Source: Terriglobales bacterium (GTDB lineage: Bacteria; Acidobacteriota; Terriglobia; Bryobacterales; Bryobacteraceae). From it: 64,000 nucleotides of DNA. Shown in pieces: positions 15,061 through 57,254 of the stretch. The DNA lies in assembly GCA_027485675.1 (NCBI GenBank), contig JAIXQP010000030.1, positions 62,001 through 126,000 of the forward strand, in the 5' to 3' direction. Each line of letters begins with the position of its first letter. Position 1 is the first letter of the stretch. Position numbers and translations under genes: made by a program. The notes under the pieces were generated by a model. That model did not search any database and was not told the DNA's origin. It saw only the letters and a program-made list of their open reading frames with translations.

Positions 15061-16465
15061 GGGCGTGCGCGAGGCCGTCGCGAATCTTGCCGAGGCGCGG
15101 CAGGAGCCCGTCGGTCTGGCAGGTGGTTTTGCGGTCGGCGTAGAGGATGCCGGCCAGTTGGCGATTGACGACGACGGGTAGCACGGCGAAGACGGCCGGT
15201 TGGACGGCTTTGACGAAGGGCGACTCGCGGAAGCGGCCGTCGGTGAGCAGGTCGACGAGCAGGTCCTGCTTCATGACGACGGCGAGCGAGAGCGGGGGCC
15301 GTTTGGGGAAGGCGACCGAGGAGGAGAAGAGCTTGCGGGCGGCGGCGGCGTCCATGCCGAGCACGCCGGTGGCCTCCATGTTTTCGAGCGACCGGCTGAC
15401 TTCGCAGAAGACGGCGCGATCGAACATGTTGGTATCGAGAACGGCTTCGAGCGCGAGCGCCACGGCGCTTTGGCGGTCCACGCCGCCGTCGGCGCGGCCG
15501 AGCATCTCTTCGAGCGGCTCTTTCACCTTGCGGTCGTTGGCTTGGAGCCGGTCGGCGCGGACACCCAGGTGGCGGAGGTTATCCTTGGCCTCATCCATGG
15601 CCCGTTCCATGAGTTTCGGCACCTGGGCGAGCGTGAGGCCGAAAACGCCGCCGTAGGTGTTCACCCAGTGGTCGAGGAGCTTCTGTTTTTCGGCCTCATC
15701 GCAGCGCTGGGAGGCGCCGACGACAATGTTGCCGAGCTTCGCGGCCAGGGCGATGCGGCTTTCGGGATCTTCGGCGGCCTGGGCCTTGAGCACTTCGGGC
15801 TCGACGACGACAGCCATTTGGGGGGCGCCGTGGAGGCCGAAGCTGGCGAGGACGCCCTTGCCGACTTCGTCAAAGGTGAAGGTGGTCTCTTTGCGGCACT
15901 CCACCTTTTCGGCCAGGAGCTTGCCTTCGCAGGCAGCCATGATCTTGGCGTACTGTTCGGGGCGATGGTAGGCGAAGACGATTTCGCCGACGTTGGCGAG
16001 CATGCCGGCGAGGTAGGCCTCTTCGGAGAGGCGGCCGTCGGTCTTCGTGGTGAGTTGCTTCGAGACGTTGGCCGAGAGCAGCGAGTACGTGACGAGTTCC
16101 ACGATGCCGGGCGACTTCTTGGCGTAGTGTTCGAGGAAGCGGGAGCTGGCGGCGATGTGGACGAGAGCGTCGAGGCCGAGCAGCGAGGCGGCATGGGAGA
16201 CGCTGAGGACGGGCCGGCCGGAGCGATTGTAGAGAGCGGAGTTGGCCGTGCGGAGAATCCGCAGAGTCAAGGCGACATCGCGCTGAATGGTGCTGGCGAA
16301 CTTCTGGATGGTTGCGTTCAGGTCGCTCGAGAGAGCGAGAATCGCGCGCACATGTTCGGCGCAAGCCGGAAAGTCGGGGTCGCTGCGGACCTGCTGTAGA
16401 AACACCTCGAGCGGTGTAATTCCTGACTTCGCGCTGTCCTTATCCACTGGCGTCCAGGGTATCAT
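15044..16465 (-). CDS. HDOD-domain signalling protein with C-terminal GAF-like region
   Basis: 473 residues, soluble. Residues about 20-230 match the HDOD fold: LALSSDLNATIQKFASTIQRDVALTLRILRTANSALYNRS, then SVSHAASLLGLDAL, AYLAGMLANVGEIV. This is the HD-related output domain that lacks a full phosphodiesterase metal site. The C-terminal about 150 residues (DTNMFDRAVFCEV...PVVVNRQLAGILYADRK) look GAF-like. Such proteins regulate motility, chemotaxis or stress responses, but no partner genes are nearby. GGAGG lies 12 bases before the ATG. The gene diverges from the HAD gene with only six bases between start codons. Confidence 0.87.
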   Translation of the reverse strand: MIPWTPVDKDSAKSGITPLEVFLQQVRSDPDFPACAEHVRAILALSSDLNATIQKFASTIQRDVALTLRILRTANSALYNRSGRPVLSVSHAASLLGLDALVHIAASSRFLEHYAKKSPGIVELVTYSLLSANVSKQLTTKTDGRLSEEAYLAGMLANVGEIVFAYHRPEQYAKIMAACEGKLLAEKVECRKETTFTFDEVGKGVLASFGLHGAPQMAVVVEPEVLKAQAAEDPESRIALAAKLGNIVVGASQRCDEAEKQKLLDHWVNTYGGVFGLTLAQVPKLMERAMDEAKDNLRHLGVRADRLQANDRKVKEPLEEMLGRADGGVDRQSAVALALEAVLDTNMFDRAVFCEVSRSLENMEATGVLGMDAAAARKLFSSSVAFPKRPPLSLAVVMKQDLLVDLLTDGRFRESPFVKAVQPAVFAVLPVVVNRQLAGILYADRKTTCQTDGLLPRLGKIRDGLAHALTLVR

Positions 16466-16474
16466 GAAAGGTTG
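16460..16474 (+). promoter_or_regulatory. Candidate leaderless promoter: TATCAT, six bases, TTG
   Basis: TATCAT (16460-16465) is followed by gaaagg and then the TTG start at 16472 of the HAD phosphatase, so the predicted transcription start coincides with the start codon. The hexamer overlaps the start codon of the divergent HDOD gene. No -35 match is visible. Confidence 0.5.
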
Positions 16475-17155
16475 CCGCCTCCGTTACTGCTTTTTGATAT
16501 CGATGGGACGCTTGTACGCCGGGCCGGGCCGTTGCACCGCGAGGTGCTTGAAGAAGCGGCGCGCGCCGTGACGGGCATCGCCTCGGCCACGACGGCAAAC
16601 ATTCCGACGCAGGGGATGCTGGACGGACAGATTTTGACGCTGATGCTGCGCGAGGGGGGCCTTTCGCTCGCGGCGATCCGGCGGGCGCTGCCGGCGATGA
16701 TGGAGATGGCGCAGGACCTATATGTTGACCGCTGCCCGGACCTGACGAAGAAGGTGTGTCCCGGTGCGCGGGGGCTGCTATCCCGGTTGGCGCGGAAGCA
16801 GGTGCGGACAGGGTTGGTAACCGGGAACCTGTCGCGCATCGGCTGGCGGAAGATGGAGCGGGCGGGGTTGCGGCAGTACTTGCAGTTTGGGGCGTTCGCC
16901 GAGCAGGCGGACGAGCGGCGGAAGCTGGTGGCCCATGCGCTGCGGACGGCGCGGCGCGAGGGCTGGATTGCGCGGGGTTCCGTGGTGGCGTTGGTGGGCG
17001 ACCACGAGAACGATATCCTGGCGGCGCAGGCCAACGGGATTCCGGTAGTTTCCGTGGCGACCGGCGTTTCTCCCGCCGCCGATTTGGCCAAGCTGCAACC
17101 CGATTATTTGATTGATGACCTTCGAAGTTTTCCCTGGCAGGATTTGTCCCTTTGA
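16472..17155 (+). CDS. HAD-family hydrolase (phosphoglycolate phosphatase-like)
   Basis: 227 residues from a TTG. HAD motif I FDIDGTLV begins at residue 7, so the start must lie at this position. Motif II is TGNLS, the motif III lysine lies in the RRKLV segment, and motif IV is GDHENDI. The cap domain is helical (C1 type). Acts on small phosphorylated metabolites; the substrate is unknown, and phosphoglycolate or a sugar phosphate would be typical. The TGA overlaps the TTG start of the methyltransferase (TTGA at 17152-17155), so the two are coupled. Confidence 0.88.
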   Translation: MPPPLLLFDIDGTLVRRAGPLHREVLEEAARAVTGIASATTANIPTQGMLDGQILTLMLREGGLSLAAIRRALPAMMEMAQDLYVDRCPDLTKKVCPGARGLLSRLARKQVRTGLVTGNLSRIGWRKMERAGLRQYLQFGAFAEQADERRKLVAHALRTARREGWIARGSVVALVGDHENDILAAQANGIPVVSVATGVSPAADLAKLQPDYLIDDLRSFPWQDLSL

Positions 17156-18579
17156 GCAAGAGTGAATCGCAGTCGCTGGCCGTAAAGCGGGCCCAAGTCG
17201 AGTTCCATAATTTTGCCTCCCTCGGCGAGCCGGAGCGGGCCAAGCGGGTCTACCACGAGGAGAACGTGCGGCGGGGCGCGATCCTGCGTCATCATGCGGC
17301 CTTCATTGGTTCGATGACGCCGTTTGTCGAGATCGGCGCGAACGCGGGCCACTCGTCGTACATGCTCTGCAACGAGTTTGGGCAGGACGGATTTGCGCTG
17401 GACATTTCGGCCGATTCGCTGCGGCACGGCATTGCGCTGATGGACGAGTGGGGGCTTGAGAAGGCGCCGGTGCGGATTGCGGGCGATGCGCTGAACCTGC
17501 CGTTTCAGGACAACTCGTTGCGGGCGGTGATCGCCTACCAGATGCTGTCGCAGTTTCAGGATATTGAAGCGGTGTTTGTGGAGGCCAAGCGAGTGCTGGC
17601 GCCGGGCGGCACGTTCATCTTCGCCGAGGAGCCGATGCGGCGGAAGCTATCGCTGCGGCTCTATCGCTGCCCGTACTACGACACGATGAAGTGGTGGGAG
17701 CGGAAGCTGTACGACTGGGGGCTGCTGGGCTTCTTTGTGCAGGACGTGATTGGCGCGGCGCAGGAGGAGGGCTTCGGCATCCGGCAGAACCACCGGCTGG
17801 AGCTGCGGGACTGGCACGCGCTGATGGTGAAGCACTTCGAAGATATGGAGTTCCGGCTGTTTCTGCCGCAGCGCGGATGGGGCGAGAAGCTGACGCGCTG
17901 GATTGGACAGCGGATCGACAAGGCGGGGTCGGACTGGGTGCCGGCGCGGCTGCTGGGCGGGACGCTGGCGGCGATGTGCCGGAAGTATGGCGAGGCGGAG
18001 GTGGATCCGCATGCGCCGTTCGAGTCGCGGCTGCGCTGCCCGGATTGCTACGCGGGCATGCGGGTGGACGAGGCGGGGACGCTGCATTGTCTGGCTTGCT
18101 CCTACGCGGCGCCGAACGAAGGCGGCGTGTATAACCTGATCCGTTCGCACGAGAAGAAAGAGCTCTACCCGGGCGATCGCGACGACGTGATTGACTTCAC
18201 GCTGCCGGGGCACGAGACGAAGCTGCTCGAAGGCTGGTTCAACCTGGAAGGCAGCTACGGCAACAAGTATCGGTGGATTGGCGAACGGGCGACGGCGAAG
18301 CTGAAGCCGATGGACGCGGCGCCGAAGCGGATCCGCATTCGCGGCCACGTGAGCGCGAACTTTTTGAAACCGGGCGCCTTTGTGAAGGTGAAGGTGAACG
18401 GCGTCGAGGTGGTGGCCTGGGAGGCCGAGCGGACGGGACTGTTCATCCTCGAAGCAGACCTGCCGCCGGCGGCAGAATATCTGGTGGAGATGCTGGCCGG
18501 TCCGCTGTGGAAGGTGCCGACCGATGAGCGCCAGTTCACGGTGACGCTGAGTATGCTGCGGCTAACTCCCCGCGACTAG
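17152..18579 (+). CDS. SAM-dependent methyltransferase with zinc-ribbon and beta C-terminal domain
   Basis: 475 residues from a TTG that overlaps the upstream TGA. Residues about 45-165 are a class I methyltransferase: VEIGANAGHSSY (SAM motif I), LDIS, then GDALNLPFQDNSL and VLAPGGTFIFAEEP. Near residues 290-325 a zinc ribbon is visible: CPDC, then CLAC 20 or so residues later, like a Trm112/YcaR-type ribbon. The last 120 residues (RIRIRGHVSANFLKPGAFVKVKVNG...) are predicted beta-sandwich. The arrangement is typical of enzymes acting on surface sugars, but the target is unknown. The 3' end overlaps a convergent gene by 18 bases. Confidence 0.82.
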   Translation: MSKSESQSLAVKRAQVEFHNFASLGEPERAKRVYHEENVRRGAILRHHAAFIGSMTPFVEIGANAGHSSYMLCNEFGQDGFALDISADSLRHGIALMDEWGLEKAPVRIAGDALNLPFQDNSLRAVIAYQMLSQFQDIEAVFVEAKRVLAPGGTFIFAEEPMRRKLSLRLYRCPYYDTMKWWERKLYDWGLLGFFVQDVIGAAQEEGFGIRQNHRLELRDWHALMVKHFEDMEFRLFLPQRGWGEKLTRWIGQRIDKAGSDWVPARLLGGTLAAMCRKYGEAEVDPHAPFESRLRCPDCYAGMRVDEAGTLHCLACSYAAPNEGGVYNLIRSHEKKELYPGDRDDVIDFTLPGHETKLLEGWFNLEGSYGNKYRWIGERATAKLKPMDAAPKRIRIRGHVSANFLKPGAFVKVKVNGVEVVAWEAERTGLFILEADLPPAAEYLVEMLAGPLWKVPTDERQFTVTLSMLRLTPRD

Positions 18580-19020
18580 TTTGGTGCCGGTTTCCTGGTC
18601 GACGAGTTCGAGGGTGCCGGACTGCGGGAAGTAGACGGCCAGGCAGTTGGCGTTGAGCAGGACGGCCATGAACTTGCCCATGAGGAGATAGGCTTCGTCG
18701 TCGGCCGCGCCCTTTTGCAGGTCGATGGACCACCAGCCGCGATGGCGGCGGACCGCGGCGCCGGTATCGGCCGAGGTGACCTTGGCGGCGAGATCTTCAA
18801 CGAACATGCCGGGGACGGACTGCACTACGAAGGTGCGGGCGCCGATGACGAAGCGCGGCCATTCGACAGTGAAGGCGCCTTCGCCCCAGGCGCGGGTGGC
18901 GGCCAGGGTGGCTGAGTTCTGCGGCAACTCGCGATAGTCCTGCAACAAGAAGACGATCGAAACCAGCGGGTCGCCTGGCGCAAACGCGAACAGACCCTTA
19001 ATCCAGGAAGCAAGACTCAC
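18562..19020 (-). CDS. Hypothetical protein, about 152 aa
   Basis: No recognised family. I choose the GTG at 19020 because a TATAAT box (19032-19027, minus strand) lies exactly six bases before it. The longer ATG start at 19044 would place this box inside the coding region and overlap the neighbouring start. Compact soluble protein with strands such as GRTFVVQSVPG-like and WSIDLQKGAADDEAYLLMGKF. No membrane segment after the first 20 residues. It diverges from the DUF1549 gene, and its 3' end overlaps the methyltransferase gene by 18 bases. Confidence 0.6.
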   Translation of the reverse strand: MSLASWIKGLFAFAPGDPLVSIVFLLQDYRELPQNSATLAATRAWGEGAFTVEWPRFVIGARTFVVQSVPGMFVEDLAAKVTSADTGAAVRRHRGWWSIDLQKGAADDEAYLLMGKFMAVLLNANCLAVYFPQSGTLELVDQETGTKLVAGS

Positions 19021-19032
19021 GCCGTGATTATA
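19018..19032 (-). promoter_or_regulatory. Candidate leaderless promoter: TATAAT, six bases, GTG
   Basis: On the minus strand a perfect TATAAT (19032-19027) is followed by six bases and a GTG that opens the frame of the 152-aa hypothetical protein. No -35 match at 16-18 bases. The plus-strand reading of the same segment (TATAGA, 19029-19034) could serve the divergent DUF1549 gene. Confidence 0.5.
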
Positions 19033-19036
19033 GAAT

Positions 19037-21205
19037 ATGGCCATGCGGTTAGCCTTTCTTTTCTTGCTTGCGATGACCGCTTGGGGGCAGAAGAAGTTCT
19101 GGGCCTTCCAGCCGCTCGAGCCGGCCGCGGGGTCGATCGACGAGATTTTGCAGCCGCAGGGGACGCCGGTGGCGGACGGGGTTTGGGCGCGGCGCGTGAG
19201 TTTTTCGCTGACCGGGCTGCCTCCCGCGGGAGAGATTCCCAGAGACCGGAAGGCTTACGTCGATAGTCTTTTGGCGAGCCCGCACTACGGCGAGCGGTGG
19301 GCGCGGCATTGGCTGGACCTGATGCGCTACGCCGAGACCAACGGGCACGAGTTCGATAACGACAAGAGCGATGCGTGGCGCTATCGCGACTACGTGATCC
19401 GGGCGTTGAACAGCGATCTGCCCTACGACCAGTTTGTGCGGGAGCACGTGGCCGGGGACCTGCTGGCGAAGCCGCGCCTGTCGGCGGATGGGAGTTCGCT
19501 CGAGTCGCCGATTGCGACCACGTCGTGGTGGTTCGGGGAGATTCTGAACTCGGCGACGGATTCGGCCAAGTCGCGGGCGGACGCCGTGGATAACCAGATT
19601 GACGTGTTTTCGAAGGCGTTTCTGGGGTTGACGGTGGCGTGCGCGCGATGCCACGACCATAAGTTCGACCCGATTCCGACGGCGGACTACTACGGGCTGG
19701 CCGGGGTGATGCATTCAACCAACGTGCGGGAGGCGGTGATCGATTCGCCGGCGCGCCGGGAGGCGATTGCGGCGAAGCTGGGACCGCGGCCCGAGGCCCG
19801 GGGGGCGAAGCTGGCGCTGCGGCCGGGCGATGAACTCTTTGAGGGATTCGAGAAGTGGCGGGCCGAGGGGCAGGCGATGGCCGTGAGCAATGGCGTGGCG
19901 AGTTCGGCGCCGAGGGAGGGCGTGGGATCGCTAACGTCGGCGAAGTTAAAGATGCCGAAGTTCTACGTGCATGTGCTGCTGCAGGGCACGAAGTACCGGC
20001 GGCCGCGGGTAGGCGAAGGCGACCTGCGGTTGACGCTGGTGGCGGATGATTTCAAGAGCTCGCACTGGTATGCGTCGGGGGTGCCGGGGTTCACGTGGCA
20101 GTCGAAACGGATGACGCTGTCGCACGGGCGGGAGTGGTATTTCGAGTTGGTGGACCGGTCGCGGAGCGGCTACGTAGGCGTGGCGGCGATTGTGATCTCA
20201 GACCATAAGACGCCGCCGGGGATTTTGGAGAACGCCACGTTGGCGGCGCCGGGTTCGGTGCCGGAGCTGCCGGAGTCCACCTTCGCGATGATCAGCAGCG
20301 ATGAGAATCCGCGGAACGTGAAGCTGCATGTGCGGGGGAGCCATCTGGATTTGGGGCCGGAGGTGCCGCGGGGGTTTTTAAAAGTGCTTTCGGCGCAGAG
20401 CCGGGAAGTGGCGGGGAGCGGGCGCCTGGAGTTTGCCGAGTGGCTGACGCAGGACGCGCAGGCGCTGCTGGCGCGAGTGATGGTGAACCGGGTGTGGAAG
20501 CACCATTTCGGCAAGGGGCTGGTGGCGTCGACGGACAACTTCGGGCTGCTGGGGGAGCGTCCGGCGAACCGGGGGCTGCTGGATGCGCTGGCGGCGCGGC
20601 TGATTGCCGGCGGTTGGCGGCTGAAGCCGCTGCACCGGGAGATTCTGCTTTCCGAGGCCTATGCGAAGACGGTGCCGGTGCGGCGCCTGGAGGCCGAGGC
20701 GATTCGGGATGCGATGCTGCAGCTATCCGGGCGGCTGGATGCGAAGCTCTACGGGCCGAGCGTGATGCCGCACATCAGCGCCTATCAGGACGGGCGCGGG
20801 AAGCCGCCTTCGGGGCCGCTGGACGGCGACGGACGGCGGAGCATCTACATCCAAGTGCGGCGGAACTTTTTGACGCCGATGTTCTTGGCCTTCGACCATC
20901 CTCTGCCGATTTCAGCGATTGGGAACCGGACGGCGAGCGTGGTGCCGAGCCAGGCGCTGATGCTACTGAATAACGAATTCGTGCTACAGCAGGCGCGGCT
21001 GTGGGCGCAGCGGACGATGAAGGAGGGCTTGGGGCCGGAGGATCTGGTGACGGCGCTCTACCGGGATGCCTTCGCCCGGGCGCCGAAGGTGACCGAGCAG
21101 ATCGCGGCGCTGGACTATCTGCGCCAGCACGGCGACAACGAAGATTCGCGGGCGGACCTGTGCCACGTTTTGTTCAATACGGCGGAGTTTAGCTATGTTC
21201 AGTAG
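19037..21205 (+). CDS. DUF1549/DUF1553 domain protein
   Basis: 722 residues with a signal peptide (MRLAFLFLLAMTAWGQ). Starts are ATG 19037 or ATG 19043; the second places MRLAF first. The N-terminal DUF1549 shows ARRVSFSLTGLPP, then YGERWARHWLDLMRYAETNGHEFDNDK, and DLPYDQFVREHVAGDLL. A CARCHDHKFDPI motif follows, and the C-terminal DUF1553 has MVNRVWKHHFGKGLV...DNFGLLGERPANRGLLDALA. No cytochrome-c CxxCH domain precedes them, unlike many planctomycete relatives. It is paired with a DUF1501 gene overlapping by 11 bases, the usual partner. The family is abundant in Planctomycetes, Verrucomicrobia and Solibacter; its biochemical role is unproven. Confidence 0.9.
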   Translation: MAMRLAFLFLLAMTAWGQKKFWAFQPLEPAAGSIDEILQPQGTPVADGVWARRVSFSLTGLPPAGEIPRDRKAYVDSLLASPHYGERWARHWLDLMRYAETNGHEFDNDKSDAWRYRDYVIRALNSDLPYDQFVREHVAGDLLAKPRLSADGSSLESPIATTSWWFGEILNSATDSAKSRADAVDNQIDVFSKAFLGLTVACARCHDHKFDPIPTADYYGLAGVMHSTNVREAVIDSPARREAIAAKLGPRPEARGAKLALRPGDELFEGFEKWRAEGQAMAVSNGVASSAPREGVGSLTSAKLKMPKFYVHVLLQGTKYRRPRVGEGDLRLTLVADDFKSSHWYASGVPGFTWQSKRMTLSHGREWYFELVDRSRSGYVGVAAIVISDHKTPPGILENATLAAPGSVPELPESTFAMISSDENPRNVKLHVRGSHLDLGPEVPRGFLKVLSAQSREVAGSGRLEFAEWLTQDAQALLARVMVNRVWKHHFGKGLVASTDNFGLLGERPANRGLLDALAARLIAGGWRLKPLHREILLSEAYAKTVPVRRLEAEAIRDAMLQLSGRLDAKLYGPSVMPHISAYQDGRGKPPSGPLDGDGRRSIYIQVRRNFLTPMFLAFDHPLPISAIGNRTASVVPSQALMLLNNEFVLQQARLWAQRTMKEGLGPEDLVTALYRDAFARAPKVTEQIAALDYLRQHGDNEDSRADLCHVLFNTAEFSYVQ

Positions 21206-28724: not shown

Positions 28725-28739
28725 TATAATATACCATTG
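28725..28739 (+). promoter_or_regulatory. Candidate leaderless promoter: TATAAT, six bases, TTG
   Basis: A perfect TATAAT (28725-28730), then atacca, then the TTG at 28737 that opens the GT2 frame. The predicted transcription start is the first base of the TTG. There is no -35 match and no Shine-Dalgarno. An in-frame ATG at 28761 would leave a 24-base leader, also without a ribosome site. Confidence 0.55.
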
Positions 28740-36222: not shown

Positions 36223-36233
36223 TAGAGTTGAGT

Positions 36234-41937: not shown

Positions 41938-41952
41938 TATAGTGGGTCTATG
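41938..41952 (+). promoter_or_regulatory. Candidate leaderless promoter of nuoA: TATAGT, six bases, ATG
   Basis: TATAGT (41938-41943), five of six to consensus, then gggtct and the nuoA ATG at 41950. It lies in the cysE-nuoA divergent region of 93 bases, the only clean intergenic location among the leaderless candidates. No Shine-Dalgarno; -35 position not conserved. Confidence 0.5.
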
Positions 41953-45905: not shown

Positions 45906-46640
45906 TCACCCCCGCCGCGCCCGCACCCACGGCGGAACCTCCGGACCCCGCCTCCCCTTCGGCTTCCCGATCTTCAACTCCAACAGCCGCTCCCCATCCG
46001 TCACCACCGCCCGCACCGCATCCGCCCCAAACCACTCCCGCAACTCCGCCGGCATCTCCCGCCGCATGTCACACCCCATCGAAAAACCCGAAAACGCCGG
46101 CAACACCACCAGTCCCCTGCCCGCGAGAAACGCCGCCATCCGCTGGCTCGCCCCCGATGCCGTCTTCACCTTGACCACCGGATGGAAATGCCCCACCACC
46201 GTCACCCCCCCCTCCTCCGGACCCTCCGGCAACGCATCCCCGTGCACCACCCGCACCCCCGCCGTCCGCCACTCCCGCACCGCCGGAAACTCCGCAAACT
46301 CCTCGGCAAACGCCCGGTCATGGTTCCCCAACACGCACACCAGCTCCGCCCGGCCCCGCAGCGCCTCCAGCGTCTCCCCAATCATCCGCCGCTCCTCCGC
46401 CGCCGGCCGTGGCGCATGGACAATATCCCCCACCAACACCACCCGCTCGGGCCGCCCCACCGAAACTAATCCCAACAACCGCTCCCGCGCCCCACCCTCC
46501 ACCACCGGGCCCAGCTCCCCCCGCCGCCGCTGCGCCCACCCGTATCCCAAGTGCAGATCCGCCACCAGCATCGTCCGCCCCTCCTCCACCCACAGCACCC
46601 CCGCCGGATCAAACCGCACGCACCGGCTCCCATTCGGCAT
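45906..46640 (-). CDS. pdeM: Ligase-associated DNA-damage-response endonuclease PdeM
   Basis: About 244 residues from ATG 46640; a GTG at 46619 is a shorter alternative. Both overlap the 3' end of the helicase gene. Calcineurin-like metallophosphoesterase: VADLHLGYG, LVGDIVHAPRP, CVLGNHDRAFAEEF, and VVGHFHPVVKV carry the Asp, His and Asn metal ligands. The family co-occurs with Lhr-like helicase, DNA ligase and a beta-CASP exonuclease in a repair module; here only the helicase is adjacent. The PIN gene follows after 21 bases. Confidence 0.9.
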   Translation of the reverse strand: MPNGSRCVRFDPAGVLWVEEGRTMLVADLHLGYGWAQRRRGELGPVVEGGARERLLGLVSVGRPERVVLVGDIVHAPRPAAEERRMIGETLEALRGRAELVCVLGNHDRAFAEEFAEFPAVREWRTAGVRVVHGDALPEGPEEGGVTVVGHFHPVVKVKTASGASQRMAAFLAGRGLVVLPAFSGFSMGCDMRREMPAELREWFGADAVRAVVTDGERLLELKIGKPKGRRGPEVPPWVRARRG

Positions 46641-49122
46641 ACACCGCCGCCGCCATCTCATCAAACGCCCGGTGCACATCCCCGGCCAGCAACACATCCC
46701 GATTGAACGCCGCAAACAACGGCAATGCAAACGGCGACGGCCGCGGATGCTCAAACCACTCCCATGGCGCCTCATGCAGCCGCCGCGCCTCCACTAACGC
46801 CCGCGGCGCGTCCAGTAAGTCTTCGAAGATCTCCCGCACCGTCTCCCGCACCAATACATGGTCCGGCTCATAAGTCATCAACGTCTGGTACAACAAACTC
46901 CCGTTCCAACTCGAATACTTCTTGTTCACCGGCCCCTTGTAACTGCGTTTCGGAATCAATTGTCCAGTCTCCGCCACGTTCCGGAACTTCCGCCCTAAGG
47001 TATCGGTCCCCCGCAGCACGGTCTCGAGATCGTTCATGAATCCCCCCGGCTCGAGCGCCGCCCGCAGCCGCGCCTCGTCCACCGGGACATGCGCCCCCAT
47101 CGACAGCAGAAACCCATGGTCGTTCGAGTTCGAAACCACGCTCTCTCCGCGTGCCAGCCGCCACGCCGCCACCCACGCCAGGCTCTGGTTCACCGCCCGC
47201 CCCGAAACGCTGTGCACCATGACCACCTGCTGCCGGCCCCGCTTCACCCGCTCCACCTGTACCGGCGAATCCACCGGCACCGGCGCTGCCTCGCTCTGCC
47301 GTTCGACGAACTCCGCCGCCAACGCCGCCACCCGCTCCGGCACCCGGAACACCTCCCGCAGCAACGCCTCGCACGCCGCCCGCCCCCCGGCCGCAAACGT
47401 CTCCCGCAGCGTCCGCCGCAGCCGCAGTTCCTCCTCGGCCATTCGGGAGCTCAGCGGCATCTTCCCGCCCATCCACCGGGGCGTCTGCACCCGTTCGCTC
47501 GCCGACGGCTTTACGATAGCCACCCCCGGCTCCAACCGTTCAATCTCTACCACCTTCCCCGCCATCAGAAACGCTTCGCCCGGCCGCAGGGAAGCCACGA
47601 ACCCCTCCTCCACATCCCCCAGCCGCCGGTTGTTCTTCGTCATCACTTTCACCCGGAAATCCTCGGAAATCGTCCCGATCCCATGAAAGTAGTCCCGCGC
47701 AATCTTCGGGCTCGCCACCTGAAAATGCCCGTCCTCGACGACAATCTTCCCGTACCGCGCCAGCACCTGCCCGCCCCCGGCCAGGTACGTCAACACCTCG
47801 CGAAACTCGTGTTCCGGCAGCTCCAAGTAGGGCCCCGCCCGCCGCACCATCGCCAGCGCCTCGCCAATCTCCCACCGCCGCTCCACGGCCATCCCCAACA
47901 GCACCTGCGCCAATACATCGAGCGGCGCCTGCGGCACGCGCAGCTCCTCCAAAGCCCCGGCCCGCACTGCCTCCCGCATCGCAATCGCTTCGAGCAGGTC
48001 CGGCAAACTCAACGGCAGCAGCCGCCCATAAGCCATCTGCCCCGTGCGATGGCCGCTCCGTCCCAAGCGCTGCAGCGCCCGCGAAACCCCGCGGGGCGTC
48101 CCCACCAGCAGCACCTGGTCCACGCCCGCATAGTCCACGCCGAGTTCGAGCGAGGTCGAACACACCACGCACTTCATCTCCCCCCGCGCCAGCCGCTCTT
48201 CGAGCAGCTCCCGCTGCCCGCGCTCAATCGACGAATGGTGCACGCCAATCCGGTCTTCCTCCTCCGGCAGCAGATATCCCAGCGCCACGCCCAGCCGTTC
48301 GGAGGCGGACCGCGTTGAACAGAACGCAATCGTCGATTGGGCATCGCCCAGGGCTTCCACGGCGGCCATCGCCACCCGCCCCGGGTCGTACCCCGCCGCC
48401 GGCAGCTTTTCGGGAATGTGCAGATCGATCCGGTGGGTCCGCCGCACCGAGTCCTGCACGATGGCGCACTGCCGGTGCCCGCAGAGCAGCTCTGCAATCG
48501 CGGACGCCGGCGAAGCCGTGGCGGAAAGCCCGATCCGTTGGAGCGCCCCGTGTCCCCGGCCCGCCAGGCGTTCGAGAGTCAGCGCCAGCAAGGCGCCGCG
48601 TTTGTTTTCGGCGAAGGCATGGATCTCATCGACGATGACGACCTGCGGAACGAACCCGTCGACCCAAGCCTTTTGCGACAGCAGCGAACTCAGGCTCTCG
48701 GGCGTGGTCAGCAGCAGATGGGGCCGCTGGCGCGCCATGCGGGACCGGTCTTTCATGGCGGTGTCGCCGGTCCGGATCTCCATGCGGACGCGTTGCTTTG
48801 GCGGCAGGCCTTCGTTCAAGGCGGCCAACGGCTCTTCGAGGTTCCGCTGAATGTCGCGTCCCAAGGCGCGCAGAGGCGTCACATAAACGGCAACGGTCGC
48901 GTTCGGCAGCGCCCCTCGGGCCGCCTCGGCGCCCAAACGGGCCAAAACCGAAAAGAAGGCGGCCAGCGTCTTGCCGCTTCCGGTGGGAGCCAGGATCAGC
49001 GTATTGTCGCCCCGCAGCGTCCGCCGCCAGGCGATGTCCTGCACATTAGTCGGGGCGGCATAGCGCGACGCGAACCAATCGGTCAACGCCTTCGGCATCC
49101 ACTCTGGCCACACCCTTCGCAA
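46609..49122 (-). CDS. Ligase-associated DEXH-box DNA helicase (Lhr family)
   Basis: 837 residues from TTG 49122; other in-frame starts shortly downstream are possible. Superfamily 2 helicase: Q-motif region PTNVQDIAWRRTLRG, motif I LAPTGSGKTLAAF, motif II VDEIHAFAENKRGALL, motif III SATASP, then CSTSLELGVDYAGVDQVLLVGTPRGVSRALQRLGRSGHR (motifs V and VI). The C-terminal winged-helix and Lhr-core domain follow. This size is that of the ligase-associated group, not the 1500-residue Lhr. It leads the operon lhr-pdeM-PIN-antitoxin. A TAGACT box lies six bases before the TTG. Confidence 0.93.
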   Translation of the reverse strand: MRRVWPEWMPKALTDWFASRYAAPTNVQDIAWRRTLRGDNTLILAPTGSGKTLAAFFSVLARLGAEAARGALPNATVAVYVTPLRALGRDIQRNLEEPLAALNEGLPPKQRVRMEIRTGDTAMKDRSRMARQRPHLLLTTPESLSSLLSQKAWVDGFVPQVVIVDEIHAFAENKRGALLALTLERLAGRGHGALQRIGLSATASPASAIAELLCGHRQCAIVQDSVRRTHRIDLHIPEKLPAAGYDPGRVAMAAVEALGDAQSTIAFCSTRSASERLGVALGYLLPEEEDRIGVHHSSIERGQRELLEERLARGEMKCVVCSTSLELGVDYAGVDQVLLVGTPRGVSRALQRLGRSGHRTGQMAYGRLLPLSLPDLLEAIAMREAVRAGALEELRVPQAPLDVLAQVLLGMAVERRWEIGEALAMVRRAGPYLELPEHEFREVLTYLAGGGQVLARYGKIVVEDGHFQVASPKIARDYFHGIGTISEDFRVKVMTKNNRRLGDVEEGFVASLRPGEAFLMAGKVVEIERLEPGVAIVKPSASERVQTPRWMGGKMPLSSRMAEEELRLRRTLRETFAAGGRAACEALLREVFRVPERVAALAAEFVERQSEAAPVPVDSPVQVERVKRGRQQVVMVHSVSGRAVNQSLAWVAAWRLARGESVVSNSNDHGFLLSMGAHVPVDEARLRAALEPGGFMNDLETVLRGTDTLGRKFRNVAETGQLIPKRSYKGPVNKKYSSWNGSLLYQTLMTYEPDHVLVRETVREIFEDLLDAPRALVEARRLHEAPWEWFEHPRPSPFALPLFAAFNRDVLLAGDVHRAFDEMAAAVYAEWEPVRAV

Positions 49123-49134
49123 CCAACCAGTCTA
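49120..49134 (-). promoter_or_regulatory. Candidate leaderless promoter of the helicase operon: TAGACT, six bases, TTG
   Basis: On the minus strand TAGACT (49134-49129), then GGTTGG, then the TTG at 49122. The divergent secreted-protein gene shows the same spacing 23 bases away on the plus strand. Confidence 0.35.
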
Positions 49135-49144
49135 GCAACTCTGC

Positions 49145-49159
49145 TACCCTACGAACTTG
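49145..49159 (+). promoter_or_regulatory. Candidate leaderless promoter: TACCCT, six bases, TTG
   Basis: TACCCT (49145-49150), acgaac, then TTG 49157, which opens a signal peptide. The hexamer matches TATAAT only at the three most conserved positions. There is no Shine-Dalgarno sequence. Confidence 0.3.
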
Positions 49160-52100
49160 CGAGCCGGTCTTCTAACACTCCACTTACTCTGGGCCAGCCA
49201 ATCTATCTGGGCCCAATGCCGCACCGAAGTAACCGAAGCGCCCCCTCTCCGCGTCGAAAGCCGCGCCGAACAGATTGCGGACCTCCGCCTCATCTGCGCC
49301 GGCCTCGCCCCGCCCGGCACCGCTAACTTCACCGTAACCCTTTCGAGCCCCATCGCGACGCCGCTCACCGGCGTCCGCCTCGAAGTCGGCCAGCCGCCGG
49401 TCACCTACTCCCCCACCCTCGACGGAACCCACCGAGTGCGTTTCGCCAACGTCACCCTCCCCGGCGGCGTCGAATCCGCCGTCCGCATCACCGGCCTCCG
49501 CGTCGACCTCGCCGGCCTCGACTCGACGCTCCGTGCCGAACCACCCGCCGTGCGCGCCACCCTCTCCGCCGGACCCATCACCGTTACCGCCCCCGAACTC
49601 GTAGCCGGTTATCCCGCGCAAAGTCTCTCCGCCCGCTTGATCGATGCCTCCACGAACCAGCCCACCCTCTCTCTCAACCTCCGCCCGGGCAGCGCACTAA
49701 GTCCAACCCATTCAATACACTTTCGAGAACGCTTTCGCGGCGCCTTCCGCACCCGATCACAGGAACCCATCGCCGCTCACGGAACCCTTCTCGTGGCCGA
49801 GTTTTCCAATCTCCCCGTGGGCGCCGGCATCTCCGTAGCCTTGGCCGACGGCTTAAACTCCGCCCGTCTGGTCGCCAGCGAAGCCAACCCGATTCCAATT
49901 CTTCAGCCCACCGCGCCGTACTTGCCGCTCCCCATCACCAACGGACGTGCGACCGCCGTCTGGGAGGTTACCGAGAACGCCACCCCCGGCATAACGTACG
50001 CCTTCGCCATCGTCGCTACCGGACCGGCCGTTACTGCCGGAGCCGGGCTACGCTACGGGCCCACCCAATCTCCGGCCCTCCCGCGGTTCGAAGCGACCAC
50101 CAAGCTCGATCCTCTCGACTGCCAGCAAAACTGTTTCTCGATTCCGGCCGTCATCTCGGTTACCCGCCGTTTCGGGCAGCCGTTACCGTCCAGGATCCAA
50201 TTACCGATAGAATTCGCCGGCCCCCCGTTTGAGCTCCGCGCTGAGGCGTATGCCGAATCCAGTCCACCGCTCCTCACCATTGACCCGTTCGGGCAGGCCT
50301 TTGACCTCCGTTTCCAACCCACCATCGTCGCACCGGGCGTCTATACCATCATCGTCGGGCTGCGCCCTCAGGGTGGCGGCCCCAGCCGGTACACCCTCGT
50401 TGTGCTTACCGTAACTCCGGCGCTCGCGGGAGAAGATCCCCCACCAGTTTGCACGCCAATTCCTCCCGTTCAAACGATCCTGCGGGCAGAGGGAATGTAC
50501 GAACCCCTGCCGGCCATCGTCGTGGAATGCCACGGAGGCGTCCCCGGCTCTTCCATCTCCGGCTCGCTATCCGGAAAAATGAACTCCGGCTTCGTTAGTC
50601 GGCTCATCGACGCCCAGCACACGGAGGCGCTGCTTGTGGTGGGCGAATCCGCCAATCCCGTCCGCCTGGTGGACGAGTTTCCCGTTCCTCGGAGCTCGAA
50701 TTTTCCTTCCACTCGACCGGTTACCGCGTTCGTTGTCAACTTCAGTTACCGTGTACCGGCAGACCGGCGAATCCGTCTCCACTTGAGGAATGTCCGGATC
50801 TCTGCCGCTTCTTTGGCCGATCATGTGGCAAGCCCATCGGCGCCCGTGGCAACCATGGAACTCAGCGCCAGCGGCGGCATTGCCATGCGGCCCACCATAC
50901 TGGCGCTGGGATCCATTCGACGAGGACTCGAATTCGGACTCCATACTCCGGACGGCCGTCCCGTCGCTCGCCTCTCGAACCCGGGGCAGTATCAAGTGCG
51001 CTTCCGCGAGGGCGCGCCTGCAGTCTTCCGGCGCCGAAATGTCGCCACCACCGTGGACAATCCGGGCGCGCTCGCCAACCAGACCGCACTAGACAACGAT
51101 CCGGCCACTGAAACCATGTTCTACGCCGAATCCCGCGGTACCGCCGGTCTCGCCACCAGTGGCACTCGTGTCAACGCCCGCTTCAGTGGGATCCCCGCCG
51201 ATGCTCGCCTCCTGGTCACCGTGGAAAACCTTCGGTCCTCCACCTCCACCGTGCGCGCGCGATTTAACTCCTCGCGCCACGGCTCCTTCGCCCCCCCTTC
51301 CCCGTCAGGAGAAACCGCTCTTTTCGAAGGCATTCCCTATGCCATGACGGAACTGGCCTTCTTTGACGGTCGGAGTAGAGACGCCAACTGGGAGGTCTTC
51401 GCCGCCGACCCAACGCAATTGGAAGAGCTCCGTTTTGGCGTCCTGCTGGTTTCGCCGGCTCCCGTGAGTCCGGTTGCCGTACTCGGGTTGCTCCATCCCA
51501 TCGACGTTAGCCTGACTCCTGCTTTCTCTGACTTCTCTCCCTCTGGACGCCGTTCGTGCACCGAGCCTGCCTGCATCTTCTATCGGGATGACGGTGGCGA
51601 GGTTCGCCTCGAACAGCGTTCGACCGACCCTGCGGTGCAATCGCGCGAGTTTTTTGTCGACACGAACGGCCCCATCATCCGATTCTTCGCCACTTCGGAC
51701 AAGCCATGGCTCACGTTCTCCAGCCTAATCGGCCAGGCACCCGGCAGTGTAGCTATTCGGGCTGACGCGACTGGCTTGGCTCCCGGAGTGCACCGTGCCA
51801 CGGTTACCCTCAACGGATTTTCGATCCCCGTGAAATTGACCATCCACCCCGTCGTTTCGCCCGTTTTGACGATCGACCCTCCCACAACACCTCCCTCGCC
51901 TCCCAACCGCCGAACGTTTCGCGTCAGTACGGGCAGCGAGAACCAGGCGACCGAAACAACCATCGTCAATGTCCTCATTAACTCCTCGCTCGACGGGGCA
52001 CGCGGCTGCTACCTCGCTTACTCGAATCCCGCTCAGGCGCTGTTTCTCGTCAACGATCAGGGGCCCGAAGCCGGTCTCTCCGCTCCCTTAGTTCTTGGAT

Positions 52101-52768
52101 CAGCAGGCGAGATATCCAACAGCCAATGCCGCATCCATGGCGCAACTTCATCGGTAACGCGGATCGGCCGAATCTTGCGCCTCACCCTTGACGTCTCCTT
52201 TACCCCCGAATTCACCGGCTCCAAAGTCATTTATGCGGCTTCCCGAACGGCCGATCTGGGTTCGAGCGGATGGATACTTCAGGATGCGCTGCACCTCCCC
52301 GGACCGGAGACGTTCCCAAGAGCCCTGGGCGGTTTGACCACGAACTATTTCTTCAGTTTCGGAGACGGAGGTCGAACCAGCATGACCTTCGTGTATGAGG
52401 ACGCAACGGACGCGCGTAATCTCGAAACGGTCTGGGGCCTCATGAACACTGGTGTCGATGCCCGTAGCGCCTGCTATTTCGCATACTATGTACCCGGCGA
52501 CCTTCTGTTCCTGTATCCCGACGACGGCAACGGAGCCGCTGCGGAAAGCATGCCGCTGCTGGGAAACCGCCTCCTGTCGAACTCGCAATGCACCCTCCTC
52601 GCCGATGGGGCCTTCGCGGAGATTTCCGGACGGCAATTGAAGCTCACCGTCTCGTTCCGGTTTCCGAACGGATTCAACCTGGAGAAAGGCGTCTGGGGCG
52701 CCGCCAAGTCCTTCACCAACCCCCAAGCCAGCCCCTGGCGGATACTAGGATCTGCTGAATTGCAATGA
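49157..52768 (+). CDS. Large secreted multidomain beta protein with two pairs of internal repeats
   Basis: 1203 residues from TTG 49157; signal peptide GLLTLHLLWASQSIWAQ. Domain A occurs twice: about residues 25-125 (LRVESRAEQIADLRLICAG) and 440-550 (LRAEGMYEPLPAIVVECHG). A BACON-like module spans about 825-897 (GPIIRFFATSDKPWLTFSS...GLAPGVHRATVTLNG). Domain B occurs twice at the C-terminus: about 935-1040 and 1090-1197, with shared marks CYLAY/CYFAY, LFLVNDQG/LFLYPDDG, and NSQC in both. Each B copy has a Cys pair about 40 residues apart, perhaps a disulfide. I recognise A and B as recurring modules of Solibacter-type secreted proteins but no function is known. The stop overlaps the peptidase start (ATGA). 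Confidence 0.82.
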   Translation: MRAGLLTLHLLWASQSIWAQCRTEVTEAPPLRVESRAEQIADLRLICAGLAPPGTANFTVTLSSPIATPLTGVRLEVGQPPVTYSPTLDGTHRVRFANVTLPGGVESAVRITGLRVDLAGLDSTLRAEPPAVRATLSAGPITVTAPELVAGYPAQSLSARLIDASTNQPTLSLNLRPGSALSPTHSIHFRERFRGAFRTRSQEPIAAHGTLLVAEFSNLPVGAGISVALADGLNSARLVASEANPIPILQPTAPYLPLPITNGRATAVWEVTENATPGITYAFAIVATGPAVTAGAGLRYGPTQSPALPRFEATTKLDPLDCQQNCFSIPAVISVTRRFGQPLPSRIQLPIEFAGPPFELRAEAYAESSPPLLTIDPFGQAFDLRFQPTIVAPGVYTIIVGLRPQGGGPSRYTLVVLTVTPALAGEDPPPVCTPIPPVQTILRAEGMYEPLPAIVVECHGGVPGSSISGSLSGKMNSGFVSRLIDAQHTEALLVVGESANPVRLVDEFPVPRSSNFPSTRPVTAFVVNFSYRVPADRRIRLHLRNVRISAASLADHVASPSAPVATMELSASGGIAMRPTILALGSIRRGLEFGLHTPDGRPVARLSNPGQYQVRFREGAPAVFRRRNVATTVDNPGALANQTALDNDPATETMFYAESRGTAGLATSGTRVNARFSGIPADARLLVTVENLRSSTSTVRARFNSSRHGSFAPPSPSGETALFEGIPYAMTELAFFDGRSRDANWEVFAADPTQLEELRFGVLLVSPAPVSPVAVLGLLHPIDVSLTPAFSDFSPSGRRSCTEPACIFYRDDGGEVRLEQRSTDPAVQSREFFVDTNGPIIRFFATSDKPWLTFSSLIGQAPGSVAIRADATGLAPGVHRATVTLNGFSIPVKLTIHPVVSPVLTIDPPTTPPSPPNRRTFRVSTGSENQATETTIVNVLINSSLDGARGCYLAYSNPAQALFLVNDQGPEAGLSAPLVLGSAGEISNSQCRIHGATSSVTRIGRILRLTLDVSFTPEFTGSKVIYAASRTADLGSSGWILQDALHLPGPETFPRALGGLTTNYFFSFGDGGRTSMTFVYEDATDARNLETVWGLMNTGVDARSACYFAYYVPGDLLFLYPDDGNGAAAESMPLLGNRLLSNSQCTLLADGAFAEISGRQLKLTVSFRFPNGFNLEKGVWGAAKSFTNPQASPWRILGSAELQ

Positions 52769-55849: not shown

Positions 55850-55878
55850 TGGACACTCCAATTCCCATGTACTATCTT
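55850..55878 (+). promoter_or_regulatory. Sigma-70-type promoter, TGGACA-N17-TATCTT
   Basis: TGGACA (55850-55855, five of six to TTGACA), a 17-base spacer and TATCTT (55873-55878). Five bases later the GTG of the 456-aa gene begins, so the transcript would start at or next to that codon. This is the only candidate here with a good -35 match. Confidence 0.6.
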
Positions 55879-55883
55879 GAGCT

Positions 55884-57254
55884 GTGACCCTCGCACGCGC
55901 CTTCCAGGTTGGGCTGTTCGCCGCCACAGCCTTCCCCTCCCTCGCTCAGCATGTGGAAACTTTGGATCTCTTACAGTTCGCCGCCCCTCCCGGACAACGC
56001 GAGAAGATCAGCGGAGGACTCCAGTTTACGGAAGTCCGGGGCAACAGCTATTGCCGCTTGGCGGTCTTTAGCAGCTTAGCTTCTTCCGGCGACCCCGCGG
56101 CTGATTTCGAACGGGAGTGGACCAACCTGGCCAAAGGACGCGGCACCACCACGCCGACGCCGCCCACCCAAACAGCAAAGGCGCCCAATGGCTGGATCCG
56201 CAGCGATGCCACCGCCGAGGAACAAACACCGTCGGCTGGACGGTATCGGTATCGACTGGTAACCTTCACCGGGAACGGCCGCCGCACCGCCGCTGCCGCC
56301 ATGCTGAACAACGAAGCGCTGTGCCGGGCAAGCGTCGATAATTTCTTCGCGGGACTCACGCCACTGCCACCCGCCGCCGGCCCCACCAACGCCCCGCCGC
56401 CGCCCACGCCCACGCCCACGCCCGCCACCGGCTTCGCCTTCACCACCACCAACTTCGACGACGGCTGGACGGCCACCGAACAAACCGACTGGGTCCGCGC
56501 CGTCAAGGGCAATGCCACCGTACTCATCCACCACGCCCAGCCCGACATCCGGCCCTTCAACAATGTCGATGAAGCCACCGCCCACGTCTGGAATCTCCTC
56601 GTGGCCCCCCGGTACACCAACGTGTCGAATCTCTGGGTGCGGCGCCCCTTCTGGTCCGACGGTGGACCGTTCGGCGCCAAGCACTTCGCCGAAGGGGACC
56701 TGACGGACAAAGCCACGGGCAAACGCGTCCACGTCGCCCTCCACCGCAGCGGCAACGGGCTGCGCTGGCTCGAGTTCATCACCCCCACCCGCGATAGTTT
56801 CTATCAGCAATTCGGCGTGGTGCAGCCGCAGGACGGGACGGATTGGGATCGCCTCGCCTCGGTGGCCAACTGCAACCGCTTTGCCGTTGCCGCGCGGGAC
56901 CTGCCTGGGAAGTGGAAGTCCTCGAGCGGCGCGGCAGTCGAGTATGTGAACATCTACACCGGGAACAGCATGGGCATGGCCTCGGCTTCCAGCACCACCG
57001 AGATAACGTTCCACCCCGATGGCACTTACGTCAGCGTCTACAAAGGCGTCGACGGCGCCAACGGCGTGAACCGCTATGTCGGAGAGACCTTCCGCGGAAC
57101 CACCACCGTCGACCGCTGGGAGATGAAGTTAACCAACCGGTTCAAAGGCGCCACCGACACCTTTGCCGTGCAGTTTGAAGCCGTCAAAGGTGGGCGGATC
57201 CTCCACATGCGCCGCGGCACTGTGGAGGAGCTGCACCTCTTCCGGCTTCCGTAA
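55884..57254 (+). CDS. Secreted two-domain hypothetical protein, 456 aa
   Basis: From GTG 55884, directly after a good promoter. Signal peptide ARAFQVGLFAATAFPSLAQ. An N-terminal domain of about 150 residues is joined by a Pro/Thr-rich linker (PPPPTPTPTPATG, about 173-185) to a C-terminal domain of about 270 residues. The latter ends in a lipocalin-like beta pattern (LPGKWKSSSGAAVEYVN, TEITFHPDGTYVSVYKG, RWEMKLTNRFKGATDTFAVQFEAVKGG). I do not recognise a named family. No coupled neighbours. Confidence 0.78.
   Translation: MTLARAFQVGLFAATAFPSLAQHVETLDLLQFAAPPGQREKISGGLQFTEVRGNSYCRLAVFSSLASSGDPAADFEREWTNLAKGRGTTTPTPPTQTAKAPNGWIRSDATAEEQTPSAGRYRYRLVTFTGNGRRTAAAAMLNNEALCRASVDNFFAGLTPLPPAAGPTNAPPPPTPTPTPATGFAFTTTNFDDGWTATEQTDWVRAVKGNATVLIHHAQPDIRPFNNVDEATAHVWNLLVAPRYTNVSNLWVRRPFWSDGGPFGAKHFAEGDLTDKATGKRVHVALHRSGNGLRWLEFITPTRDSFYQQFGVVQPQDGTDWDRLASVANCNRFAVAARDLPGKWKSSSGAAVEYVNIYTGNSMGMASASSTTEITFHPDGTYVSVYKGVDGANGVNRYVGETFRGTTTVDRWEMKLTNRFKGATDTFAVQFEAVKGGRILHMRRGTVEELHLFRLP

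What the first reader, a model, noticed from the sequence alone, without database searches (positions are those of the whole stretch)
16460..55886. A -10 hexamer exactly six bases before start codons: probable leaderless mRNAs
At eight operon-leading genes a TAnnnT or CATAAT hexamer is followed by exactly six bases and then the start codon: 16460 TATCAT/TTG, 28725 TATAAT/TTG, 40666 TATCAT/GTG, 41938 TATAGT/ATG, 49145 TACCCT/TTG, and on the minus strand 38881 CATAAT/ATG, 34509 TACAGT/ATG, 49134 TAGACT/TTG. A ninth (19032 TATAAT/GTG) fits if the GTG start is right, and 55873 TATCTT has five bases. In such GC-rich DNA a TAnnnT at one fixed position should be rare (below about 2 percent per gene). 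Nearly all lack a Shine-Dalgarno. A TANNNT box seven bases from the start codon is the known mark of leaderless genes in Deinococcus and Actinobacteria; I know of little on it in Acidobacteria.
Basis: partly seen in the sequence, partly recalled or inferred. Interest (0 to 1): 0.72.

Follow-up and report, generated by a model that had tools for sequence, protein, structure and literature searches.

The report
Leaderless genes with shared mini-promoters
In this acidobacterium many genes seem to be copied into RNA starting right at the first codon, sometimes an unusual UUG, and some neighbouring genes that point away from each other appear to share one tiny promoter; leaderless genes were already predicted for this phylum, the UUG starts and the shared promoters are the unusual part.

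Summary
All eight listed boxes lie exactly six bases before the stated start codon, and the 'ninth' (19032, minus strand, GTG 19020) is right too. With starts called without looking upstream, TAnnnT at spacer 6 precedes 22 of 191 divergent-gene starts in 845 kb of this genome, against 2.2 per control offset; a sister species agrees, E. coli does not. Box, spacer and start are conserved in the genus. Best reading: a sigma-70-type -10 element whose transcript starts at, or within a few bases of, the start codon. No RNA data exist, so this is inference. 'Exactly six' is the mode; 7 and 8 also occur. Leaderless genes in Acidobacteria were already predicted (Zheng 2011: 3 of 3 genomes, 13.3%). Two aspects go further: TTG starts conserved at the leaderless position (16 of 16 genomes for one gene), although TTG was ineffective there in mycobacteria and UUG absent from leaderless genes of C. 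diphtheriae; and 7 of 99 divergent pairs sharing a symmetric ANNNTANNNT core with 21-25 bp between start codons: one two-way promoter apparently feeding two leaderless mRNAs.

The parts
16460..16465 (+). -10 box TATCAT, six bases before TTG 16472 (HAD hydrolase)
   Evidence: TTG at spacer 6 in 9 of 15 aligned loci; in the other 6 a GTG or ATG start, 5 of these with a box at spacer 6 or 7 (read)
16472..17155 (+). HAD hydrolase gene, start TTG
   Evidence: Pfam match from residue 5; no other start codon before residue 5 in the window
16456..16461 (-). -10 box TACCCT, eight bases before GTG 16447; shares TA with the plus box 16460-16465 (core AGGGTATCAT 16456-16465)
   Evidence: (3 of 4 relatives)
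15044..16447 (-). HDOD-domain gene, start GTG
19027..19032 (-). -10 box TATAAT, six bases before GTG 19020; core ATTATAGAAT 19027-19036 shared with the plus gene
   Evidence: 5 of 5 relatives
18562..19020 (-). gene without Pfam match at E 0.001, start GTG 19020
19031..19036 (+). -10 box TAGAAT, six bases before ATG 19043
   Evidence: 3 of 3 relatives; in G016 the upstream ATG at 19037 reads AAT
19043..21205 (+). PSCyt2/PSD1 gene, start ATG 19043
8717..8722 (-). -10 box TAGCAT, six bases before ATG 8710; core ATGCTACACT 8717-8726 shared with the plus gene
   Evidence: 4 of 4 relatives
8721..8726 (+). -10 box TACACT, eight bases before TTG 8735
   Evidence: 4 of 4 relatives
28725..28730 (+). -10 box TATAAT, six bases before TTG 28737
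   Evidence: box (TATAAT, in one TATACT), spacer and TTG in 16 of 16 genomes with an aligned ortholog, of 19 searched
28737..29771 (+). glycosyltransferase 2 gene, start TTG
   Evidence: L109 and L110 show no other ATG, GTG or TTG in the first 12 codons
34504..34509 (-). -10 box TACAGT, six bases before ATG 34497
   Evidence: 8 of 16 aligned loci; the other 8 have no box there but a GGGAG leader, 7 of them with TAGGAT or TACGAT about 23-25 bases upstream (read)
33592..34497 (-). molybdopterin oxidoreductase gene, start ATG
38876..38881 (-). -10 box CATAAT, six bases before ATG 38869 (GlgB)
   Evidence: CATAAT at spacer 6 (14) or 7 (2) before ATG in 16 of 16 aligned loci (read)
36731..38869 (-). 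glgB, start ATG 38869
   Evidence: GlgB_N match from residue 4
40666..40671 (+). -10 box TATCAT, six bases before GTG 40678
   Evidence: TAnnnT at spacer 6 or 7 in 17 of 17 aligned loci, start GTG in 16, ATG in 1 (read)
40678..41211 (+). NUDIX gene, start GTG
41938..41943 (+). -10 box TATAGT, six bases before ATG 41950
   Evidence: 9 of 9 aligned loci L079-L087; the 40-44%-identical second copies were not aligned
41950..42306 (+). NADH dehydrogenase chain 3, start ATG
49129..49134 (-). -10 box TAGACT, six bases before TTG 49122
   Evidence: window and 5 near relatives share GTTGCTAnACTGGT and TTG; 15 more distant loci in the same call do not show this unit
46609..49122 (-). Lhr-type helicase, start TTG
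   Evidence: in L051 and L057 TTG is the only start before the conserved WPEWM
49145..49150 (+). -10 box TACCCT, six bases before TTG 49157
   Evidence: one relative only: TAACCT, six bases, TTG in G017
49157..52768 (+). 1203-aa gene without Pfam match at E 0.001, start TTG
36231..36236 (-). -10 box TAGACT, eight bases before ATG 36222
   Evidence: 6 of 6 relatives
3329..3334 (+). -10 box TACCCT, eight bases before ATG 3343
   Evidence: 4 of 4 relatives
31381..31386 (+). -10 box TACGCT, seven bases before ATG 31394
   Evidence: 7 of 7 relatives
8031..8036 (-). -10 box TATACT, eight bases before GTG 8022
   Evidence: 4 of 4 relatives
55873..55878 (+). TATCTT, five bases before GTG 55884; unsupported candidate
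   Evidence: no ortholog among fetched stretches

Best explanation
The hexamers are -10 elements of ordinary (sigma-70/RpoD-type) promoters set so close to the gene that RNA polymerase starts at the first base of the start codon, or one to three bases before it. The mRNA therefore has no leader and no Shine-Dalgarno site, and the ribosome must start on a 5'-terminal AUG, GUG or UUG. Shown here by computation: the box, its position, its conservation and the lack of Shine-Dalgarno words. Inferred: that RNA polymerase uses it, where transcription starts, and that ribosomes start there. In a subset of divergent gene pairs two such boxes overlap by the self-complementary TA (ANNNTANNNT), so one core would fire in either direction and give two leaderless mRNAs; this too is inferred from sequence and conservation.
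For: Spacer-6 peak 22 of 191 divergent starts against 2.2 per offset here, 8 of 76 against 1.0 in 400 kb of sister species G017. In-frame test over both, divergent, leading and edge genes: ATG 44 (background 8.7), GTG 16 (5.0), TTG 15 (5.6), CTG 5 (8.1); out of frame these four codons stay at 6 or fewer. Inside the box A is enriched and T depleted at the fourth and fifth position, although the search fixed only T, A and T. 14 of 36 window genes with at least three orthologs have a box at 5-9 conserved in all or all but one, against 2, 2, 2 and 1 for four control ranges of equal width under the same rules. Box-led genes lack Shine-Dalgarno words. E. coli through the same pipeline: no peak, in blind starts or in 141 annotated starts.
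Against: No transcript 5' ends, no protein N-termini. My caller's starts are approximate (106 of 141 annotated E. coli starts identical). No -35 signal was seen at spacer-6 genes. In two genomes of another family of the order (200 kb each) the signal is lower: divergent plus leading genes at spacers 6, 7, 8 give 3, 2, 6 against 1.0 per offset (G028, n 107) and 3, 4, 1 against 1.2 (G035, n 112; plus 4 of 43 operon genes at 6 against 0.3). Out-of-frame ATA also shows an excess at spacer 6 (8 against 2.0). The TTG excess in this genome alone is 9 against 3.1 in leading genes and 9 against 4.5 over all classes; the pooled 15 count four ortholog pairs twice and include three TTGATG cases. Across 149 Acidobacteria genomes the bare two-way pattern gives 1065 sites against 1009 for its reversed control, which holds the commoner AT in place of TA. 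No shared core was found among 49 divergent pairs of G028 and G035.
Confidence: 0.9

Rival explanations
1. The mRNAs are leaderless, but never on UUG: at TTG genes transcription starts one or more bases upstream, giving a very short leader, or translation starts at a later codon.
For: TTG was a poor leaderless initiator in M. smegmatis and UUG occurs only in leadered genes of C. diphtheriae. The initiating nucleotide is usually a purine (passage on E. coli-type promoters), and HAD, Lhr and the window's GT2 gene have G or A just before TTG. Three of 15 TTG cases are TTGATG.
Against: A later start is hard to hold for GT2 (no other start codon in the first 12 codons of L109/L110), HAD (domain from residue 5), Lhr (L051/L057) and QueA (TTG at the conserved N-terminus, in-frame stop 9 bases upstream). 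A one- or two-base leader is not excluded, and would still mean UUG initiation without a Shine-Dalgarno site.
Confidence: 0.3
2. The box is a translation signal (an A/T-rich ribosome-recruiting element in a leadered mRNA), not a promoter element.
For: Its position is close to where ribosome sites lie; no -35 was found.
Against: The internal composition is that of a -10 element; the peak sits at the -12 to -7 geometry for a +1 at the start codon (recalled); eight of 16 loci of the 34497 gene lack the box there and have a GGGAG leader instead; in D. radiodurans the same kind of motif acted as a promoter and could not be replaced by a ribosome site (passages).
Confidence: 0.06
3. Chance: TAnnnT is short, and starts were chosen to fit it.
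Against: Starts were chosen without looking upstream; peak and conservation exceed the controls.
Confidence: 0.02

Closest known systems
TA-led (leaderless) genes of Zheng et al. 2011, incl. Acidobacteria (PMC3160421)
   Same: TA-like signal about 10 bp before the start; TAnnnT in high-GC groups; 3 of 3 Acidobacteria genomes, 13.3% on average, range 9.7-19.4 (abstract, section 7 and passages)
   Different: The words TTG and GTG occur 0 times in its held text; the parts read do not speak of shared divergent promoters
-10 motif next to ORFs in Deinococcus-Thermus (PMC12340547)
   Same: -10 motif about 6-7 bp before the ORF, tested there as a promoter (passages)
   Different: Another phylum; nearly one-third of genes there; 'acidobacteri' occurs 0 times in its text and the single TTG is part of a -35 hexamer
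Mycobacterial and corynebacterial leaderless mRNAs (PMC4633059, PMC5784534)
   Same: Leaderless translation as a normal route (passages)
   Different: ATG or GTG needed in M. smegmatis; UUG confined to leadered genes in C. diphtheriae. Here TTG is conserved at the leaderless position
Bidirectional promoters with symmetric -10 (PMC12825309, PMC10268837)
   Same: One -10 region read in both directions, TSSs 7-25 bp apart (passages)
   Different: [quoted passage not shown] here the offset for 23 bp prevails and both sides are protein starts

Membership tests
Leaderless (TA-led) genes | -10-like box at fixed distance before the start, enriched over the genome | tested here: met
   22 of 191 against 2.2 in a 12.8% sample
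Leaderless (TA-led) genes | no Shine-Dalgarno at box-led starts | tested here: met
   6 of 64 at spacer 6, 0 of 31 at 7, 4 of 29 at 8, 4 of 23 at 9, against 116 of 470 unboxed
Leaderless (TA-led) genes | conserved position in orthologs | tested here: met
Leaderless (TA-led) genes | transcript 5' end at or within about 5 nt of the start codon | not testable with these tools
   no RNA data held
Leaderless (TA-led) genes | translation starts at that codon | not testable with these tools
   N-terminal homology agrees but is not an assay
Mycobacterial-type leaderless rule | start codon is ATG or GTG only | tested here: not met
   by sequence only: TTG at spacer 6 in GT2 (16 of 16 genomes aligned), HAD, Lhr, 49157 and QueA
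Symmetric bidirectional promoters | overlapping -10 elements on both strands, TSS distance 7-25 bp | tested here: met
   by sequence only: 7 of 99 divergent pairs, core ANNNTANNNT, distance 23 bp if both transcripts start seven bases after the box
Symmetric bidirectional promoters | usual 18-bp distance | tested here: not met
   7 pairs at the 23-bp offset, 2 at the 18-bp offset, one of these rejected, in the own sample
Symmetric bidirectional promoters | divergent transcripts seen | not testable with these tools
   no RNA data held

The most novel reading that the evidence does not exclude
Bryobacteraceae translate leaderless mRNAs from 5'-terminal (or nearly terminal) UUG as a conserved, normal route, and pack divergent genes back to back so that a 10-bp symmetric core (ANNNTANNNT) and 21-25 bp of DNA are the whole non-coding control region for two leaderless mRNAs, with any -35 contacts falling inside the opposite gene's first codons.
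Probability: 0.6. Interest if true: 0.65.

Novelty: new variant of a known kind. Interest (0 to 1): 0.5.

Why it matters
In the species where it was tested, leaderless initiation needs AUG, or AUG/GUG. A lineage in which UUG sits at that position, unchanged across proteins down to about 58% identity, would let one ask what its ribosome or initiation factors do differently. The shared cores would be very small two-gene control regions: polymerase can face only one way at a time and there is hardly room for a regulator. In practice, gene callers that rely on Shine-Dalgarno sites may misplace starts in this environmental phylum.

Tried and rejected
Rejected: that 19032 was an error. I first read it on the plus strand, where the box does not fit; on the minus strand it is right. 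Rejected: 34516(+) as a second gene facing 34497; box and TTG are kept in only 2 of 4 relatives and the frame shifts. Rejected as evidence for the phylum: the bare pattern CAH-N6-ANNNTANNNT-N6-DTG; 1065 sites against 1009 reversed over 149 genomes, and 99 against 108 in the 16 same-class genomes outside the order. In this genome it gave 8 sites against 4 reversed; 5 of the 8 lie between two coding ORFs, but the 4 control sites were not examined in the same way. Not useful: upstream regions of 29 NuoA loci across the phylum, where starts were hard to align. The search for 16S rRNA found none in this assembly, so the anti-Shine-Dalgarno was not checked.

Rows dropped: genes under 300 bp or 240 bp (47 and later), and starts within 60 bases of a stretch end; orthologs under 60% identity, aligned only past residue 25, or with less than 75 bases upstream; window genes with fewer than three orthologs (36 were left); weak or partial hits (paralogs, fragments). 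Genes and neighbours come from my own caller, not from an annotation. Of 519 kb of G017 used, 119 kb had been picked because they hold window orthologs; the 400 kb had not. Loci from named and unnamed sources overlap (see below), so the Lhr rows are partly the same DNA.

Literature was read as abstracts, single sections or passages only: PMC3160421, PMC10783764, PMC12340547, PMC4633059, PMC5756330, PMC9031893, PMC12825309, PMC10268837, PMC5784534. PMC7612053 and PMC4007540 are not held. Statements that something was not found in print rest on searches of an open-access library. Recalled, from no call: the -12 to -7 geometry of the -10 element, the N-terminal motif of QueA.
Full report
Where the window lies. 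It is part of a 6.59-Mb, 54-contig genome, 97% complete. The 20 loci that are 51-97% identical to its Lhr helicase and whose titles name a group bear Acidobacteria, Acidobacteriaceae, Bryobacterales, Bryobacteraceae, Bryobacter or 'Candidatus Sulfopaludibacter' names.

Checking the observation. Each listed site was printed: 8 of 8 have six bases between hexamer and start codon. 19032 is on the minus strand (TATAAT, six bases, GTG 19020). 55873 has five. Pfam finds HAD, GT2, NUDIX, NADH dehydrogenase chain 3, GlgB, molybdopterin oxidoreductase and Lhr helicase in seven of the ten proteins first scanned, PSCyt2/PSD1 in an eighth (the plus-strand gene at 19037), and nothing in 49157 and 55884.

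Is it more than chance? I wrote a gene caller that scores coding hexamers and picks starts without looking upstream. On 200 kb of E. coli it gave the annotated 5' end for 106 of 141 genes. In the acidobacterium, TAnnnT stands at spacer 6 before 22 of 191 divergent-gene starts, against 2.2 at an average control offset, with 8 and 9 at spacers 7 and 8. Sister species G017 gives 8 of 76 against 1.0 in 400 kb, and 15 of 124 against 1.8 when stretches with window orthologs are added. E. coli gives 1 of 50 against 1.0, and 0 of 141 annotated starts against 2.1. Two genomes of another family of the order, 200 kb each, give lower signals: 3, 2, 6 at spacers 6, 7, 8 against 1.0 (G028, 107 divergent or leading genes) and 3, 4, 1 against 1.2 (G035, 112 genes), with 4 of 43 G035 operon genes at spacer 6 against 0.3. 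The excess at spacers 6-8 in this genome is 17% of divergent, 12% of divergent plus leading and 8% of operon-internal genes, near the 9.7-19.4% range that Zheng et al. report for three Acidobacteria.

What the element looks like. At the 64 spacer-6 starts the unfixed fourth and fifth box positions favour A and avoid T, and -14 favours G; no -35 is visible. Shine-Dalgarno words occur at 6 of 64, against 116 of 470 unboxed divergent or leading genes and 50 of 470 in a stretch further upstream.

Conservation. Orthologs from 19 genomes of the genus were lined up on their starts (counts read off the printout). GT2: TATAAT, once TATACT, six bases, TTG in 16 of 16 genomes with an aligned ortholog, down to about 58% protein identity. 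NUDIX: box at 6 or 7 in 17 of 17, GTG in 16, ATG in one (one row, L167, has a stop at codon 3). GlgB: CATAAT at 6 or 7 before ATG in 16 of 16. NuoA: 9 of 9. HAD: TTG at 6 in 9 of 15; the other six start with GTG or ATG, five of them with a box at 6 or 7. The 34497 gene: box at 6 in 8 of 16; the other 8 have GGGAG in a leader and 7 of these TAGGAT or TACGAT 23-25 bases upstream, an apparent switch between leaderless and leadered within one genus. Lhr: GTTGCTAnACTGGT...TTG in the window and 5 near relatives, while most DNA further upstream differs; 15 more distant loci in the same call do not show the unit. Over the window, 36 genes had at least three orthologs in fetched stretches; 16 have a box at spacer 5-9 before an in-frame start and 14 keep it in all or all but one ortholog, against 2, 2, 2 and 1 in four control ranges. 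One of the 14 (22527, spacer 9) also carries AGGAGG and is ambiguous.

TTG starts. An in-frame test over both genomes gives spacer-6 boxes before ATG 44 (background 8.7; also 27, 19 and 25 at 7, 8 and 9), GTG 16 (5.0), TTG 15 (5.6) and CTG 5 (8.1) (P for TTG 7e-4). Of the other codon-frame combinations tested, out-of-frame ATA stands out (8 against 2.0). The TTG figure is weaker than it looks: four cases are orthologs counted in both species and three are TTGATG; in this genome alone TTG is 9 against 3.1 in leading genes and 9 against 4.5 over all classes. The case rests on conservation: GT2, HAD and Lhr above; 49157, with TAACCT, six bases and TTG in G017; and QueA, with TTG at the conserved N-terminus after a box at six bases in this genome, G017, G013 and, in another genus of the family, G135: 4 of the 30 loci aligned, of 59 genomes with a match; three further rows have TTG without such a box and the rest other codons. 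In L109/L110 (GT2) and L051/L057 (Lhr), and before residue 5 in the window's HAD gene, there is no other start codon. Whether transcription begins at the T or one or two bases earlier cannot be told.

Shared cores. Three divergent pairs in the window have -10 boxes overlapping by TA: ATGCTACACT (8717-8726), AGGGTATCAT (16456-16465), ATTATAGAAT (19027-19036). In the 845-kb sample 99 divergent pairs were called; 18 have a box at 5-9 on both sides, and 7 of these have exactly this overlap, with 22, 24, 25, 21, 24, 24 and 22 bp between the start codons; the 18-bp arrangement occurs twice (one is the rejected 34516 case) and no other offset from -12 to 60 more than twice. G017 has five among 64 pairs, three of them orthologs of the window pairs; G028 and G035 have none among 49. 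Of 20 sites in this genome with two in-frame starts around any 10-bp core at these spacers, 7 read ANNNTANNNT; eleven other four-letter cores gave 0 or 1. A genome-wide pattern search with both spacers six gave 8 sites against 4 for the reversed control; 5 of the 8 lie between two coding ORFs, among them a GDPD/SpoU-methylase pair and a mandelate-racemase-like gene; two of the five were already in the sample, and the control sites were not examined. Across 149 Acidobacteria the bare pattern gives 1065 sites against 1009, so wider spread is open.

Comparison. Leaderless genes are known, by prediction also in this phylum. In M. smegmatis TTG at the leaderless position was ineffective; in C. diphtheriae UUG occurs only in leadered genes; in Gluconobacter 2 of 62 leaderless genes use TTG; a review says UUG is much less efficient in E. 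coli. Bidirectional promoters are known, usually with 18 bp between the two starts. I found no paper joining bacterial leaderless genes and shared divergent promoters in searches, over an open-access library only.

Verdict. The TTG use and the two-gene cores make it a variant worth testing.

Noticed in passing
33592-34509 and loci L187-L194: Within one genus the molybdopterin oxidoreductase gene seems to switch from leaderless (box six bases before ATG) to leadered (box further upstream, GGGAG in the leader).
   Followed up: partly
17942-18041: ARAGORN calls a tRNA-Ser (gga) wholly inside the 475-aa ORF 17152-18579; one of the two is probably a false call.
   Followed up: no
L034:3490(-), L036:10741(+), L242:2545(+) (G017 C2): Three genes start TTGATG with a box six bases before TTG (nine before ATG), as if the start could slip between the two codons.
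   Followed up: no
31381-31394: A conserved box seven bases before an ATG lies inside the end of the upstream gene, so leaderless starts may occur within operons.
   Followed up: partly
G000 assembly: No bacterial 16S rRNA match in the assembly, likely an assembly gap.
   Followed up: no
L049:4524/4545 and G017 C2:19775/19797: Two possible divergent pairs with the 18-bp symmetric arrangement of -10 boxes.
   Followed up: no
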